Of a stretch of 64,000 nucleotides of DNA, positions 17,791-52,593 are shown one piece after another. The notes under the pieces are model-generated. The model was not told the DNA's origin and ran no database searches. It worked only from the letters and a program-made list of their open reading frames with translations. The translations under genes were made by a program, and so were the position numbers. How positions within the stretch are numbered: the first letter of the stretch is position 1; each line of letters starts with the position of its first letter. Origin of the DNA: Halolamina salifodinae (GTDB taxonomy: Archaea > Halobacteriota > Halobacteria > Halobacteriales > Haloferacaceae). The stretch is taken from positions 62,001 through 126,000 of the forward strand of contig NZ_JAGGLC010000005.1 in NCBI RefSeq assembly GCF_017874235.1, written 5' to 3'.

Positions 17791-20604
17791 ATGCGAATTC
17801 GGGGCCCCATCGTCGACGTCGGCGAGCCACGGACCGTCGGCGGCGGCACCGACCTCGTCGAGATCACGATCCGGCCCGAGCGCGGCGCCGCCGACCCCGT
17901 GCGGGTGACGCTCTGGAACAAGTGGAGCGAGACCGCCGACTACGCCGAGGCGGGGATGGAACTGCTGGTCACCGACGCCGAGGAGTCCGAGTTCCAGGGC
18001 GAGGTGGGCTACGAGACCACGCCCGACTCGTGGGTCGTCCTCGAACCGGAGTTCCTCGTCGACGTGACCGCCGTACGCTCGTGGGTGCAGTGCCCGCGGA
18101 TGTACTACCTCAACAAACTCTCCGGGGTGCCGCTGAAGTACCCCGTCGTGAAGGGGACCGTCGTCCACGAGGTGTTCGGCGACCTGCTCCGCGGGCGGGA
18201 CCTCGAGGACTCCATCGACCACCGCGTCGCCGAGGCCGGCCTCGAACTCGGGGCGCTGGGCTACGACCGCAAGGAAGTCGAGGACGAGGTACGCCGGAAC
18301 GCCGCCGCCGTCGAGGGGTGGCTCCAGCAGGGCACCCTGACCGAGGAGGACACGTGGCGCTCGGAGTACACGCTCATCTCGCCGACGTTCGGGATCAAGG
18401 GCCGCGCCGACGCCCTCAGGCGCGGGATGCCCGTCGAACTCAAGACGGGGAAGAACACCAAACGCGAGCCGCGGTTCCAGGACAAGATGCAGGCGGCCTG
18501 CTACGCGCTGATGCTGGAGGAGCAGGGCGTCGACGTCGAGGGACACAGTCCCTCGGGCAGCCAGACGCAGTCTGGCAACGCCGACACAGCGACCCTCCTG
18601 TACACCAAAAACACCGCGCTCGAACGCGCCGAGGAGACTGGCGACCTCGCCCCGGCGAAGGAGTTCTCCGTGGGCCCGGGCCTGCTGAAGTTCGTCGTCC
18701 GCACCAGAAACGAACTGGCGGCGATGGAGTTCGACGCCGCCGTCCCCACGGGGTTCGAGGCCGACGCCCGCTGTCAGTACTGCTTCGAACAGGACACCTG
18801 CATGGTCGTCTCGGGGCGACTGGATCAGGAGTCGAAAGCCGGCCAGATCGGCAAGCCGCTGCCGGCCGCGGAGCGCGCGTACTTCGAGGGGTTCTACCAG
18901 GGCATCGAGGCCGAACGCCGCGAGGTCCACGCCGAGTACCGCAAACTCTGGGAGCAGACCGCCGGGGAGCGCGCCGAGGACGACCGGGCGCTGCTGGATC
19001 TCGAACCGCTCGACCGCGAGGAACTCCCGGGCGGTCGCTGGCGCCTGCGGGCCCGCAAGCCCGACGACGCCGTCTCGAAGCTCCGGCCGGGCGACGTGGC
19101 GCTCGCCAGCGACGGTGACCCCGTCTCCGGGCACGCGGAACTCTGCCGGATCCAGAGCCTTGGCACCGGGAAGGCCGGCGCCGAAATCGTCGTCGAGGCC
19201 GACGAGCCAGTCGACGTGTGCCGCCTCGATGTCTACCCCTCCGAACTCTCGGTCGACCGGATGCTGACCGCGCTCCACGACGGCGTCCTGAAGGGCGACC
19301 CCGGCCGGAAGGACGTGCTGTTCGGCCGGCGTGACCCCGAGTTTTCGGGGCCACAGCGCGAGTACGTCGGCAACAACGACGCCCAGAACGAAGCCGTGAA
19401 CCTCGCAACCCGCGCCGAGGACTTCGCGCTGGTCCACGGGCCGCCCGGGACCGGGAAAACCTACACCATCGCTCAGACGGTGCAGGCGCTGATCGAGCAG
19501 GGCGAACGCGTGCTGCTCTCGGCGTTCACCAACCGCGCGGTCGACAACGCACTCGAAGCGGTGCGGGAGCAGGGCGTCGACGACGCGGAGATCGTCCGGT
19601 TCGGCACCGAGTCCGGGATCCGCGAGGACATGCAGGACGTGCGGCTGGAGCAGGCCGGCGACCCCGGCGAGCGTATCTCGGAACTCCGGGACGCCTCGCT
19701 GGTGGCGGCGACGACGGCCTCCTGTGGCTCGCGGATCATGCGCGAGGAGGCGTTCGACGTGGCGCTGGTCGACGAGGCCTCGCAGTTGACCGAACCGGCG
19801 ACGCTGGCGGCGATCAACCTCGCCGAACGCTTCGTCCTCGTCGGCGACCACGAACAGCTACCCCCGGTGGTGCAGGCCGAGGGCGGGAAGCGATGGGCGC
19901 CCGAACACAGCGCGGCAACCGACGGCGGAACGGCCGCGGAGTCCGGCGGCGACGGGGCCACCGCCGACCGCCCGCCGCGACTCGATCTCTCCACGTCGCT
20001 GTTCGAACGCCTCCACGAGATGGCGCCCGAGGCGTCGGTCCTGCTGGACCGCCAGTACCGGATGGCCCAGCGGATTCAGGCGTTCTCCTCGCGGGAGTTC
20101 TACGACGGCGCGCTCCGGCCCGCGAACGGCGAGGTGGCCGCCCAGCGTATCGCGGACCTCCCGGGCGTCGACGTCGATGCGATCCCACGGAATCTGCGCG
20201 GTTCGGTCTCGTTCGTCGACCCCGACGGGGAGCGCGCGGGGAACACCAACCCGACGGAGGCCGACCGCGTGGCCGAGGTCGTCGACCAGTTCGTCGCCGC
20301 TGGTGTCGACGAAGAGGACATCGGGGTCATCGCGCCGTTCCGGGCCCAGGTCGCCGAAATCTCCCGGCGCGTCGACGCCACCGTCGACACGGTGGACCGC
20401 TTCCAGGGGTCGAGCGAGGAGGTGATCATCGTCTCCTTCGTGGCGACTGGAGAGCTCTCCGGGCCGATCTACGACGACCCGCGGCGGATGAACGTCGCGC
20501 TCACGCGGGCGAAGAAGTCGCTCGTCCTCGTCGGCGACGCGGGCGCGCTCTCGTCGGATCCGTTCTACGACCGGATGCTCGACTGGGCCCGTCGGGAACT
20601 TTAG
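17791..20604 (+). CDS. Dna2-like nuclease-helicase (Cas4/RecB nuclease fused to superfamily 1 helicase)
   Basis: 937 residues. The N-terminus has an OB-like stretch (residues 1-90). A nuclease follows: first cluster Cys in SWVQCPRMYYLNKL (about residue 101), FGIKGRADAL and PVELKTGK as metal motifs, and CQYCFEQDTC near residues 329-338 completing a four-Cys Fe-S cluster as in Dna2/Cas4/AddB. The helicase half has Walker A VHGPPGTGKTYT (about 550), AFTNRAVDNALE, VDEASQLTEPATL and GDHEQLPPVV (about 658-690), and VDRFQGSSEEVIIVSF plus RRMNVALTRAKKSLVLVGD near the end. This is the architecture of Dna2, which processes flaps and resects ends. A low-complexity insert lies near residues 705-730. Confidence 0.93.
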   Translation: MRIRGPIVDVGEPRTVGGGTDLVEITIRPERGAADPVRVTLWNKWSETADYAEAGMELLVTDAEESEFQGEVGYETTPDSWVVLEPEFLVDVTAVRSWVQCPRMYYLNKLSGVPLKYPVVKGTVVHEVFGDLLRGRDLEDSIDHRVAEAGLELGALGYDRKEVEDEVRRNAAAVEGWLQQGTLTEEDTWRSEYTLISPTFGIKGRADALRRGMPVELKTGKNTKREPRFQDKMQAACYALMLEEQGVDVEGHSPSGSQTQSGNADTATLLYTKNTALERAEETGDLAPAKEFSVGPGLLKFVVRTRNELAAMEFDAAVPTGFEADARCQYCFEQDTCMVVSGRLDQESKAGQIGKPLPAAERAYFEGFYQGIEAERREVHAEYRKLWEQTAGERAEDDRALLDLEPLDREELPGGRWRLRARKPDDAVSKLRPGDVALASDGDPVSGHAELCRIQSLGTGKAGAEIVVEADEPVDVCRLDVYPSELSVDRMLTALHDGVLKGDPGRKDVLFGRRDPEFSGPQREYVGNNDAQNEAVNLATRAEDFALVHGPPGTGKTYTIAQTVQALIEQGERVLLSAFTNRAVDNALEAVREQGVDDAEIVRFGTESGIREDMQDVRLEQAGDPGERISELRDASLVAATTASCGSRIMREEAFDVALVDEASQLTEPATLAAINLAERFVLVGDHEQLPPVVQAEGGKRWAPEHSAATDGGTAAESGGDGATADRPPRLDLSTSLFERLHEMAPEASVLLDRQYRMAQRIQAFSSREFYDGALRPANGEVAAQRIADLPGVDVDAIPRNLRGSVSFVDPDGERAGNTNPTEADRVAEVVDQFVAAGVDEEDIGVIAPFRAQVAEISRRVDATVDTVDRFQGSSEEVIIVSFVATGELSGPIYDDPRRMNVALTRAKKSLVLVGDAGALSSDPFYDRMLDWARREL

Positions 20605-20628
20605 ACTCATGTCACGTAGTTGACATCC

Positions 20629-20650
20629 TCCTCCAGCTAAAGCCGGAGGA
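20629..20650 (-). other. right-end hairpin of the TnpB element
   Basis: TCCTCCAGCT and AGCCGGAGGA form a 10-base stem with one A/C mismatch and a very short loop. This CCTCC...GGAGG hairpin next to the tnpB 3' end is typical of haloarchaeal IS200/IS605 right ends and would fall in the omega-RNA scaffold. Confidence 0.75.
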
Positions 20651-20668
20651 ATCCCAAGCGTTGAGATA

Positions 20669-21925
20669 TTAGGGTTTACAGTCTCCCTGCTCTCTCGTTG
20701 TGAACGACCCGCTCTCGCGGTCGAATAGGAAGACTCCGGGCTGTGCCAACCAGCCGTTACTCATATCCCCCGTCGGGGGACTCTGAGTTATCTTTCTCCG
20801 AATATTCACCGCGCCGTTCACGTCCGCATTCATCGTCGTCTCGCACGACGAGCAGACGTACAACCCACGTTCCACGCGGTTGCTATCACGAATCTGCCCG
20901 CAACACGAACACGTCTTCGACGTGTTCTCCTCGTCTACGCGATCAACGAGGACACCGTGCTCCTCAGCTTTGTATTCGAGTAGACGAGCGAATCGGTCAA
21001 ACTCCCATCCGTGGAGTTTCTTGTTCCCCGACGCACCCCAGTCCCGCGAATTGCCGTCACCGTCTTCGCGGATGTCACTGAGGTCGCCAACCGCTATCTT
21101 CTCCACGCCTTCTTCGACACACCGCTCAACGATATGTTTCGAGAGGGTGTGAAGGAAGTGACCTTTGCGCCGGGAGAGTTTCTGCCGAGCCTTCCGCGCA
21201 CGTTTCGACGGTCCGTTCTCGCCTTCAGTCTGGTACTCCTCGCGGGTGAAGTAGTGCTTGTCCTCTTTCAACACGTTCCCCGGATACAGTTCGCTCGTGC
21301 CATCCTCGTAGTCGATGGCGAGGTAGTTGCTGATTCCGAGGTCGATACCCGCCGTGTTGTCGCCGGGTGCGTCCTCGACAGGTATCTCTTTCTTGCAGAC
21401 GAGGTGGAGTTCCCACTCATCCCCATTCCAGACGGCACGAACCTGCTGGATATTCTCGACTGCTACGTCGGGGCGGGTTTCGTACTCCGCGAGGATGAAG
21501 TCAGACCGGCTCTCTTTCAGGTTGAAGCCTTTCGAGAGACGGAGTTGACCGTGCTTGTCGTCGTGTTTGATGGCCTGTTTCTTCCAGGTGACGGTGGAGC
21601 GCGGGTGGTCGTCGCCACGTTTCCGGTAGCCCGGTGGGTTGTTGCCGTCGTCGGAGTTGTACCAGCCGATGAACGCCTCAGCAAGTTCTTCGAGAACTCG
21701 CTGACTTGACTGAGAATGTAGGTCACTGTAGCGTTCGTGGTCTTTCAACTCCGACTTCAACTCGGCTTCGTCGGGTATCTCATCGTCTTCATCCCACCGG
21801 CCTTGGATGTAGTAGCGTCCAACATTCCACAGTTTGGATGCGGAGAACCCACACTGGTCGAGGTCGTCACGAACCTGTTCGTGGTTCGTGATGCGTGCGA
21901 CGTAGGTGCGGGTTGTCTCCATCAT
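20669..21925 (-). CDS. tnpB: TnpB-family RNA-guided nuclease / transposase accessory protein
   Basis: About 418 residues. The RuvC-like core has GIDLGISNYLAIDY (first Asp), then EKIAVGDLSDIRED at the RuvC-II position, and MNADVNGAVNIRRK with the last Asp. A zinc finger lies between: TCSCCG and YVCSSC. At RuvC-II the usual catalytic Glu (E-D-L) is replaced by Gly (G-D-L), a variant I associate with haloarchaeal members, whose activity is not clear from sequence. In-frame starts at 21940, 21925 and 21922 are possible; MMETTRTYVARI is the likely beginning. The C-terminus extends past the zinc finger with a TGDMSNGWLAQPGVFLF stretch. Confidence 0.92.
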   Translation of the reverse strand: MMETTRTYVARITNHEQVRDDLDQCGFSASKLWNVGRYYIQGRWDEDDEIPDEAELKSELKDHERYSDLHSQSSQRVLEELAEAFIGWYNSDDGNNPPGYRKRGDDHPRSTVTWKKQAIKHDDKHGQLRLSKGFNLKESRSDFILAEYETRPDVAVENIQQVRAVWNGDEWELHLVCKKEIPVEDAPGDNTAGIDLGISNYLAIDYEDGTSELYPGNVLKEDKHYFTREEYQTEGENGPSKRARKARQKLSRRKGHFLHTLSKHIVERCVEEGVEKIAVGDLSDIREDGDGNSRDWGASGNKKLHGWEFDRFARLLEYKAEEHGVLVDRVDEENTSKTCSCCGQIRDSNRVERGLYVCSSCETTMNADVNGAVNIRRKITQSPPTGDMSNGWLAQPGVFLFDRESGSFTTREQGDCKP

Positions 21926-22048
21926 CGTTCTGCAGTACATAATATGTTATAAAGAGCAGACTATCAAAACCAACGAGCGAGGGTGGGGGGAGAATATCCG
22001 GCTGGAGTGTTATCGGTGGGTTGCCGGTCCGAGTGTCGGATTCATCCC

Positions 22049-22062
22049 GCGCCTAAAGGCGC
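22049..22062 (-). other. left-end hairpin of the TnpB element
   Basis: GCGCC-TAAA-GGCGC is a perfect 5-base stem with a 4-base loop, extended by CC/GG pairs after one mismatch. It lies about 125 bases before the tnpB start, the place of an IS200/IS605 left end. Confidence 0.7.
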
Positions 22063-22199
22063 AGGTATTCTCCTTGTTCTTTATAAACCGACCACGACGG
22101 GAGGGTCGGGTGAATATTGCGGCAAGCCGTGGGGCCGGCCCACAAGCCTTTTGTCCGGCATCCACGTGAGAGTTGCGTAATGACGAGGGGAGCGTCCGC

Positions 22200-24017: not shown

Positions 24018-24055
24018 CACAAACCGTTTTGGCGATTGGCTCACAACATACACAC

Positions 24056-24376
24056 ATGAGTTCGGGATCGACCGACAAACGGCGGGTACAGTTCCGAGCA
24101 CCCGAGAGCTTGGTCGAACGAACAGACGCGCTCGCCGCAGTATTAGAGACGAACCGAACGGACGTGATCATCTCCGCACTCCGTGACCATCTCCGGAACG
24201 CGGCACACGACGACGAACTCAAACAGGAGATCGCGGGGGCGTACTACGACGGGGAGATCAGTTTCGAGGAATTACGGGAACTACTCGGCCACGAAGAGGC
24301 GGCAAACTTCCGTGTGCTCAAACAGCAGTTAGACGAGGAGTTCATCGAGGCCGTAGGCGAGGAGCTGGTCGAGTAG
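24056..24376 (+). CDS. ribbon-helix-helix protein, probable antitoxin
   Basis: 106 residues from the ATG at 24056. KRRVQFRAPESLVERTDALA followed by LETNRTDVIISALRDHLRN is a CopG/RHH DNA-binding fold. The remainder is helical and acidic (SFEELRELLGHEEAANFRVL), as antitoxin C-termini are. It stops at the base before the start of the PIN-domain gene. The pair sits between cofC and cofG, and its composition is somewhat less GC-rich than its neighbours, suggesting insertion. Confidence 0.82.
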   Translation: MSSGSTDKRRVQFRAPESLVERTDALAAVLETNRTDVIISALRDHLRNAAHDDELKQEIAGAYYDGEISFEELRELLGHEEAANFRVLKQQLDEEFIEAVGEELVE

Positions 24377-24886
24377 ATGCGGGTCGTTGCAGATACCTCA
24401 GCGCTGGTCAGCCTCGAAACCGTCGCTGAGACCGATTCCCCTCCGCTCGACATCCTCCACGACCAGCACTCGGTGCTAGTTCCCCGACAGGTCTGGAACG
24501 AACTCGAAGAGACGGCGTCGTACGACGATACCTCCGGCCAGGCAGCGACAGCAGTTCTCGAAAGGCGTGAATCGTTCGACGTTCGGTCGGTGGATCTTGA
24601 CGAATCGTTCCCGCTCGACGACGGCGAGAACGCTGCAGTGGCACTCGCGAACGACGTCGATGCCGTACAGCTACTCTGTGACGAATTTAACCGGCTCGCG
24701 CTCATTCACGCCTCATTAACCGCGACGCGACTCGTGACGACGCCGATCCTCCTCGCTGGCTTTGTGAGTGGTGGAACGCTATCGGCCGATAGCGCACAGG
24801 AGTTGCTAGCGACGATCAGTGAGGCTCGAAGTTGGTCGGGCAACAACTACGTGGAGCGGGCGAAGGAATCCATGTCGTCCGAGTAG
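24377..24886 (+). CDS. PIN-domain protein, probable toxin
   Basis: 169 residues starting MRVVADTSALVSLETVAETD. PIN acidic residues are visible: Asp6 in ADTSAL, Glu in WNELEE, LDDGENAAVALAND and LLCDEFNRLAL. It resembles the longer (about 165 residue) archaeal PIN proteins paired with RHH proteins. The start codon directly abuts the stop of the RHH gene, indicating coupled translation. Ribonuclease activity is inferred from the fold only. Confidence 0.83.
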   Translation: MRVVADTSALVSLETVAETDSPPLDILHDQHSVLVPRQVWNELEETASYDDTSGQAATAVLERRESFDVRSVDLDESFPLDDGENAAVALANDVDAVQLLCDEFNRLALIHASLTATRLVTTPILLAGFVSGGTLSADSAQELLATISEARSWSGNNYVERAKESMSSE

Positions 24887-51915: not shown

Positions 51916-52593
51916 GTGTTCGTAGACGAAAGTGGGAACCACAGTCGGCCAGACTGTTATATCGTGTCGTGTTGTTGGTGCGTTACTGAGTACGACGATC
52001 CGAATCGAGTGCTGCGGTCGACAAAGAACAAAATCTCGGACAATGTCATCTATCCTCGCGACGAACCGTCACCCGGACGGGAGCTCAAGGGGGCCGAAAT
52101 AACGGATACAAAGCTCAATTCGGCCTTCGCTTACCTTCGAAAGATCGGTAAAGGCGACGGCACAATCGTTACGGCTGGTCTGCCATGGTCTGACCGGCAG
52201 CCGATACGATTCACTTCTTACGAGAGCGAGAGTGAACTTGGAAGTCGTATCAGTCAGGATTACCTCGGAGAAGGAAGATCAGAATTCCTTGATCAGATTG
52301 TTGGCCTCTCGTCGGCGATAACCCCGCTTTTCCGGCTATTGGCTCGACACGAACCGAATATTGAGATGGGTCACGTGCTACTAGACGCAGAAACTTGGAA
52401 AACACCGAGCGACAAGATCGAATCCCTCGTTACCCCTATCGAGTGGATCCCGGAGGTGAGGTTCAGCGTGCATAATAGCCAAGCTGTTCCAGGGATTCAA
52501 TTAGCCGATATCGCAGCCCATATGCGTCGTAGTTTCATTATGGATGGCGACTGCAAAGAGGGGCAGAGCTATCTGAACGAGCTGAGGTTGTAG
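51916..52593 (+). CDS. DUF3800-family protein
   Basis: 225 residues, GTG start. The family signature MFVDESGN is at the very start, LLDAETWK comes later, and SQAVPGIQLADIAAHMRRS closes the RNase H-like core expected of DUF3800. The function of the family is not settled; members are often near mobile or defence genes. Base composition is clearly less GC-rich than neighbours, and codons such as ATA, AAA and TTA are used, all consistent with recent acquisition. It stands alone with its own promoter. Confidence 0.85.
   Translation: MFVDESGNHSRPDCYIVSCCWCVTEYDDPNRVLRSTKNKISDNVIYPRDEPSPGRELKGAEITDTKLNSAFAYLRKIGKGDGTIVTAGLPWSDRQPIRFTSYESESELGSRISQDYLGEGRSEFLDQIVGLSSAITPLFRLLARHEPNIEMGHVLLDAETWKTPSDKIESLVTPIEWIPEVRFSVHNSQAVPGIQLADIAAHMRRSFIMDGDCKEGQSYLNELRL

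What the first reader, a model, noticed from the sequence alone, without database searches (positions are those of the whole stretch)
20620..22075. TnpB-only element with an atypical RuvC-II motif
The RuvC-I Asp and RuvC-III Asp motifs are intact, but the RuvC-II site reads AVGDL where most TnpB proteins have a Glu before D-L. This is either a shifted catalytic residue, as in described TnpB groups with rearranged RuvC-II residues, or a nuclease-dead TnpB that could have become an RNA-guided repressor. There is no tnpA, consistent with a domesticated role.
Basis: partly seen in the sequence, partly recalled or inferred. Interest (0 to 1): 0.6.

Follow-up and report, generated by a model that had tools for sequence, protein, structure and literature searches.

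The report
Transposon nuclease with relocated catalytic glutamate
This is an ordinary, still-mobile haloarchaeal transposon gene for an RNA-guided DNA cutter whose 'missing' active-site residue sits at another, already described position, so it is most likely a working nuclease rather than a dead one.

Summary
In detail: the RuvC-II motif reads AVGDL (Gly280) where most TnpB proteins have Glu. The dead or domesticated reading is not supported. The protein carries Glu332 exactly six residues before the first zinc-finger CxxC (E-ENTSKT-CSCC). This is the published alternative glutamate (Ealt) of Fanzors and a clade of TnpBs.

Among 191 TnpB sequences in one alignment, 120 have Ealt and no canonical Glu, 71 have canonical Glu and no Ealt, and none has both. 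Another 69 show the same rule. With both columns masked, one fully supported branch separates the two types. The nearby Glu308 (WEF) is Ala, Ser or Pro in 34 of the 120, so it is not the replacement.

The gene is under strong purifying selection (median dN/dS 0.10 over 40 copies). It lies in a complete 1463-bp TnpB-only IS200/IS605-type element (20620-22082) with a TTTAT-type TAM and a covarying right-end RNA structure. Close copies occur in many haloarchaeal genera; six of six congeners lack the insertion here. Published work reports that one RuvC-II-rearranged TnpB cuts DNA. Cleavage by this copy is inferred, not shown.

The parts
20672..21925 (-). tnpB, 418 aa, RNA-guided endonuclease TnpB family, alternative-glutamate (Ealt) type
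   Evidence: NF040570 190.3 bits against cut-off 100, PF07282 and PF01385; full-length TnpB/Cas12f fold
21341..21343 (-). codon of RuvC-I Asp195 (DLG motif)
   Evidence: Asp in 116 of 116 full-length Ealt proteins; end of strand 190-196 in the model
21086..21088 (-). codon of Gly280, the position of the canonical RuvC-II Glu
   Evidence: sequence; column analysis
20930..20932 (-). codon of Glu332, alternative catalytic Glu (E-x6-CxxC)
   Evidence: regex match; mutual exclusion with canonical Glu; directly after strand 326-331 and before the zinc ribbon
20822..20824 (-). codon of RuvC-III Asp368 (NAD motif)
   Evidence: Asp in 116 of 116 full-length Ealt proteins
20620..22082 (-). whole TnpB-only element, left end to right end, 1463 bp
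   Evidence: sharp loss of conservation at both ends among 45 close copies; plasmid matches run from query 3-5 to 1471, i.e. window about 22086-20620
22083..22087 (-). TAM TTTAT just upstream of the left end (core TTAT)
   Evidence: NTTAT at this place in 39 of 45 copies
20620..20750 (-). 3' part of the predicted omega RNA scaffold, overlapping the tnpB 3' end, with the right-end hairpin
   Evidence: 38 pairs, 98.0% of cells paired, 8 pairs with compensatory changes, 0/500 shuffles reach this; synonymous divergence halved in codons 376-418
20604..20619 (-). predicted guide, first 16 nt of host flank (length taken from ISDra2)
   Evidence: conservation stops after GTCAA (42 of 45 copies); inferred by analogy to ISDra2 (PMC8612924)

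Best explanation
The window holds a TnpB-only IS200/IS605-type (IS1341-like) element of haloarchaea. Its TnpB belongs to the clade in which the RuvC-II glutamate has moved from the end of one beta strand (canonical, here Gly280) to the loop after the next strand, directly before the zinc ribbon (Glu332). The triad Asp195-Glu332-Asp368 is complete. TnpB most likely binds the omega RNA made from its own 3' end and the right end, uses the adjoining host flank as guide, and cuts the re-joined empty site (TTTAT followed by the flank) after excision, so that repair copies the element back. Mobility would depend on a TnpA acting from elsewhere. Shown here: motif, mutual exclusion, clade, selection, element ends, RNA covariation, empty sites in relatives. 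Inferred: actual cleavage, omega RNA expression, TnpA in trans.
For: Glu332 matches ExxxxxxCxxC, the Ealt definition of PMC10711439 (passages): 119 of 120 Ealt proteins match the regex and 0 of 71 canonical ones. Ealt and canonical Glu exclude each other in 191 of 191 TnpBs, and in 69 more. Tree with both columns masked: one edge, support 1.0, splits 20 Ealt from 34 canonical tips with no misplaced tip. Model (mean pLDDT 81.1): Glu332 follows strand 326-331, Asp195 ends strand 190-196, Asp368 opens helix 367-380. This is the topology given for Fanzor in PMC11423790 (passages). Fold matches: ISFba1 TnpB Z 23.2, ISDra2 TnpB Z 22.2, mimivirus Fanzor2 Z 20.0. Median dN/dS 0.101 over 40 copies. Nety et al. 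report one active ortholog in the RuvC-II-rearranged clade RII-r5 (PMC10278001, passages).
Against: Only one rearranged-clade ortholog is reported active in the passages read, and I could not verify that RII-r5 is the clade of this protein. 32 of 59 orthologs in that screen showed no TAM activity. The other acidic residue, Glu308, is conserved in the immediate subclade. The first structure model (37 close sequences) was poor, pLDDT 51.
Confidence: 0.92

Rival explanations
1. Nuclease-dead TnpB that has become an RNA-guided repressor (TldR-like).
For: The canonical RuvC-II Glu is absent; no tnpA in the element.
Against: The same Gly occurs across a whole mobile clade together with Ealt. Of the TnpBs lacking the canonical Glu, 120 of 120 have Ealt. 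The element is multicopy, with further near-identical ends at four contig ends of this genome, and widespread. The 16-nt guide has no other match with fewer than 3 mismatches in the held genome. Six of six congeners lack the insertion, so the locus is not conserved.
Confidence: 0.04
2. The replacement catalytic residue is Glu308 of the WEF motif rather than Glu332.
For: Glu308 is conserved in the immediate subclade (86 of 120 Ealt proteins; invariant in A4).
Against: It is Ala in 31, Ser in 2 and Pro in 1 of the 120 Ealt proteins, including two other TnpBs of the same genome (L002, L003). Many canonical TnpBs also have Ala there, so it does not track the loss of the canonical Glu.
Confidence: 0.03
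3. The RuvC-II change is degeneration of one decaying copy.
For: Some relatives do carry stops or frameshifting inserts (L033, L060, L085, L086-L089).
Against: This copy has no stops, its RuvC-II Gly is shared by the clade, and dN/dS is about 0.10.
Confidence: 0.01

Closest known systems
Ealt TnpBs with a D-Phi-G RuvC-I motif (clade described in PMC10711439)
   Same: Glu six residues before the first CxxC, no canonical RuvC-II Glu, DLG rather than DPG at RuvC-I
   Different: Nothing found; this is a haloarchaeal member in a TnpB-only element
Haloarchaeal IS1341-type / IS200/IS605 TnpB elements with omega RNAs (sotRNAs) in Halobacterium salinarum (PMC12558985)
   Same: tnpB with a structured RNA at its 3' end and a right-end hairpin next to the guide
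   Different: Expression was not measured here; whether the H. salinarum copies are Ealt was not checked
ISDra2 TnpB (canonical)
   Same: Overall fold (Z 22.2), TAM next to the left end, guide from the right flank
   Different: Canonical Glu278 and a tnpA in the element, against Gly280 plus Glu332 and no tnpA here
Fanzor2, e.g. mimivirus L79 (9b0l), and pro-Fanzors
   Same: Alternative glutamate position; fold Z 20.0
   Different: They carry DPG at RuvC-I; this protein has DLG

Membership tests
TnpB (guided_TnpB, NF040570) | Profile match over curated cut-off | tested here: met
   190.3 bits against 100
TnpB (guided_TnpB, NF040570) | TnpB/Cas12f fold over the full length | tested here: met
   Residues 1-383 aligned, top rows Cas12f, TnpB and Fanzor2
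TnpB (guided_TnpB, NF040570) | RNA-guided, TAM-dependent DNA cleavage | not testable with these tools
   needs a cleavage assay
Ealt TnpB | Glu at ExxxxxxCxxC before the zinc finger | tested here: met
   EENTSKTCSCC
Ealt TnpB | No Glu at the canonical RuvC-II position | tested here: met
   Gly280
Ealt TnpB | Groups with other Ealt proteins in a tree | tested here: met
   20 of 20 Ealt tips on one side of a fully supported edge, catalytic columns masked
Fanzor / pro-Fanzor | DPG at RuvC-I together with Ealt | tested here: not met
   DLG; 115 of 120 Ealt proteins here have DLG and 1 has DPG
Nuclease-dead TnpB / TldR | RuvC acidic triad lost | tested here: not met
   Asp195, Glu332, Asp368 present; definition recalled
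Nuclease-dead TnpB / TldR | Guide matches a host locus outside the element | tested here: not met
   Only its own flank matches exactly; other hits have 3 mismatches; genome 91.8% complete; definition recalled
TnpB-only IS200/IS605-type element | Defined left and right ends with hairpins, TAM at the left end, no tnpA | tested here: met
   Ends from 45 copies; no hit to the own-genome TnpA in the flanks of any of 80 relatives (one TnpA as query, flanks up to 2 kb)
TnpB-only IS200/IS605-type element | Insertion absent at the same place in relatives | tested here: met
   Six of six congeners examined have the two flanks adjacent

The most novel reading that the evidence does not exclude
Haloarchaeal Ealt TnpBs keep the triad but have changed chemistry, for example nicking, or guided cutting without collateral single-strand cleavage, which would let TnpB-only elements persist in many copies.
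Probability: 0.15. Interest if true: 0.5.

Novelty: new member of a known kind. Interest (0 to 1): 0.17.

Why it matters
It shows how a motif scan that looks only at the canonical RuvC-II Glu would wrongly call a whole mobile clade nuclease-dead. The mutual exclusion of the two glutamates is a simple screen for separating relocated sites from truly dead TnpBs. The element is a compact, salt-adapted Ealt nuclease that could be tested in Haloferax volcanii.

Tried and rejected
I first suspected Glu308 (WEF) as the replacement residue; it is not conserved in sister TnpBs.

The automatic column call in the viral set first labelled 62 proteins 'neither'. Reading the rows showed the canonical Glu present but shifted in that alignment. 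Adding the same sequences to the earlier alignment gave 62 canonical-only and 7 Ealt-only. The first structure model, from 37 close homologs, was poor and was not used. The first viral scan gave no relative. Rfam had no match in the window at its gathering scores. The Altae-Tran 2023 census of TnpB/Cas12 is not held; what I know of it is recalled. VIA-align rows are limited to Foldseek's top 1000.

Rows dropped from counts: four ORFs that are not TnpB (L051_1, L069_1, L080_0, L171_1) and one 116-aa fragment of a stop-interrupted canonical TnpB (L106_0), from 196 ORFs. 17 of the 206 loci in the five sets gave no ORF with the zinc-finger pattern. In one search, 143 of 244 loci gave a usable ORF. 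In the RNA alignment I used 24 sequences (the window and 23 copies) that I chose.

Full report
What is there. The minus strand of the window encodes a 418-aa TnpB (20672-21925) inside a 1463-bp element (20620-22082) between a Dna2/AAA helicase-like gene (17791-20604) and a CetZ gene (from about 22200). It passes NF040570 at 190.3 bits against a cut-off of 100. RuvC-I reads GIDLG (Asp195), RuvC-II AVGDL (Gly280), RuvC-III NAD (Asp368).

Where the glutamate went. PMC10711439 (passages) defines an alternative RuvC-II glutamate, Ealt, six residues before the zinc-finger CxxC. It describes two Ealt clades, one with DPG at RuvC-I (Fanzors and pro-Fanzors) and one with D-hydrophobic-G. The window protein reads E332-ENTSKT-CSCC with DLG: it fits the second clade. 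PMC11423790 (passages) places the Fanzor catalytic Glu in the loop between the fifth strand and the zinc-binding domain. In my model Glu332 directly follows strand 326-331 and precedes the zinc ribbon.

Mutual exclusion. I aligned 196 ORFs: the window protein, close relatives, other TnpBs of the same genome and family-HMM hits from class and phylum. Of these, 191 are TnpBs with both columns: 120 Ealt-only, 71 canonical-only, 0 both. Of the five others, four are not TnpB and one is a fragment. Leaving out the similarity-picked set and the window, the counts are 41 Ealt-only and 70 canonical-only. A further 69 proteins, from viral-contig scans seeded with chosen queries, gave 62 canonical-only and 7 Ealt-only after a misalignment in a first attempt was corrected. 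The published regular expression matches 119 of 120 Ealt and 0 of 71 canonical proteins. In the 116 full-length Ealt proteins (a group defined by Glu332), Asp195 and Asp368 are invariant too; no other acidic position of the window protein is acidic in all of them. A tree of 54 tips under 80% identity, with both catalytic columns masked, has one edge of support 1.0 that separates 20 Ealt from 34 canonical tips exactly.

The decoy. Glu308 in WEF is conserved among the closest relatives but is Ala, Ser or Pro in 34 of 120 Ealt proteins. It does not follow the loss of the canonical Glu.

Structure. A first model from 37 close homologs was poor (pLDDT 51.1). A second, with 41 more diverse sequences, has mean pLDDT 81.1; the ten-residue blocks holding Asp195, Gly280, Glu332 and Asp368 average 84-93, while 287-302 lie under 50. 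VIA-align gives AsCas12f Z 26.0 (rmsd 4.3, 353 aligned), ISFba1 TnpB Z 23.2 (4.2, 344), ISDra2 TnpB Z 22.2 (5.1, 341) and mimivirus Fanzor2 Z 20.0 (4.1, 348).

The element is mobile. 227 stretches in public genomes encode relatives; the best 80 were kept, many at 86-94% protein identity in genera such as Natrinema, Halorubrum, Haloterrigena, Halobaculum, Halorussus and Halobacterium. 27 plasmid records hold it, the top ones over its full length. Among 45 close copies, conservation begins just after NTTAT (39 of 45; TTTAT here) and ends at GTCAA (42 of 45). Six of six congeneric genomes examined have helicase and CetZ flanks adjacent, without the element. In this genome, further ends of near-identical copies (95-100%) lie at four contig ends, which suggests at least two more copies lost to assembly. 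No TnpA hit was found in the flanks of any of the 80 relatives; the genome's single Y1 TnpA is on contig C4 beside a canonical TnpB. This fits movement by a TnpA in trans, which is inferred.

RNA. The last 131 bases of the element in 24 copies fold into a consensus with 38 pairs; 98.0% of cells pair, 8 pairs have changes on both sides, and 0 of 500 shuffles reach this. The right-end hairpin has double changes in 6 of its 9 pairs. Synonymous divergence falls from 0.655 in codons 1-375 to 0.302 in codons 376-418, as expected if an RNA overlaps the gene's end. PMC12558985 (outline and two sections read) describes omega RNAs with a right-end hairpin and a pseudoknot in Halobacterium salinarum. No RNA data were available here.

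Selection and guide. Over 40 copies dN/dS is 0.065-0.15, median 0.101. The 16-nt predicted guide matches only its own flank exactly; the next best places in the genome have 3 mismatches (8 places, against 2 for the reversed control). A repressor with a fixed host target would be expected to have a target elsewhere; none was seen in a genome estimated 91.8% complete.

Known activity. PMC10278001 (passages) reports one ortholog of the RuvC-II-rearranged clade RII-r5 active in a TAM screen and states that such clades should not be assumed inactive. I could not verify that this protein is RII-r5. PMC8612924 (passages) gives the ISDra2 model: cleavage of the re-joined donor site and repair from the sister copy. 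I apply it here by analogy.

Verdict. This is a new copy of a known kind: an Ealt TnpB in a TnpB-only haloarchaeal element. It is most likely an active guided nuclease. The dead or domesticated reading is not supported.

Noticed in passing
L086, L087, L088 about 2220-2279 (inside tnpB at residue 74); L084 and L087 right end; L098, L181 and others: Short (about 50-65 nt) double-hairpin units, hairpin-(T)GATG-hairpin, in or beside TnpB elements: 13 hits in 10 of the 236 loci then held, stems differing in sequence but paired. A subfamily (GTCCTCAGAA..TTCTGATG) occurs 46 times in 19 of 38 haloarchaeal genomes, 0 in the reversed-pattern control. By eye, 14 of the 46 lie within about 350 bp of or inside a TnpB gene listed (a truncated list). 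They resemble REP/IS200-type mini-elements; GTAG/CGTC REPs are described for other prokaryotes (PMC3733652, passages).
   Followed up: partly
L086, L087, L088: Three genera carry an insert at the same codon 74 of tnpB (about 55 nt, shifting the frame), but the stem sequence of L086 differs from that of L087 and L088.
   Followed up: partly
L049 and L051, left end: About 50 nt of extra DNA inside the left-end hairpin.
   Followed up: no
G000 contigs C2, C3, C4, C6, ends: Four contigs end inside near-identical copies of this tnpB (L004, L005, L008, L009), so the element probably broke the assembly.
   Followed up: no
window 24029-24886: Two adjacent small ORFs in an AT-richer stretch that read like a ribbon-helix-helix antitoxin and a PIN-type toxin (impression only; no Pfam match at E 0.001).
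   Followed up: partly
window 51916-52593: ORF of 225 aa in or beside the lowest-GC kilobase of the window (0.554), starting MFVDESGNH, possibly foreign.
   Followed up: no
L202, L209, L226, L230, L232: Ealt TnpBs whose former RuvC-II motif has changed further (GDP, GWP, GHP, SWP in place of GDL), as expected if that site is no longer catalytic.
   Followed up: no
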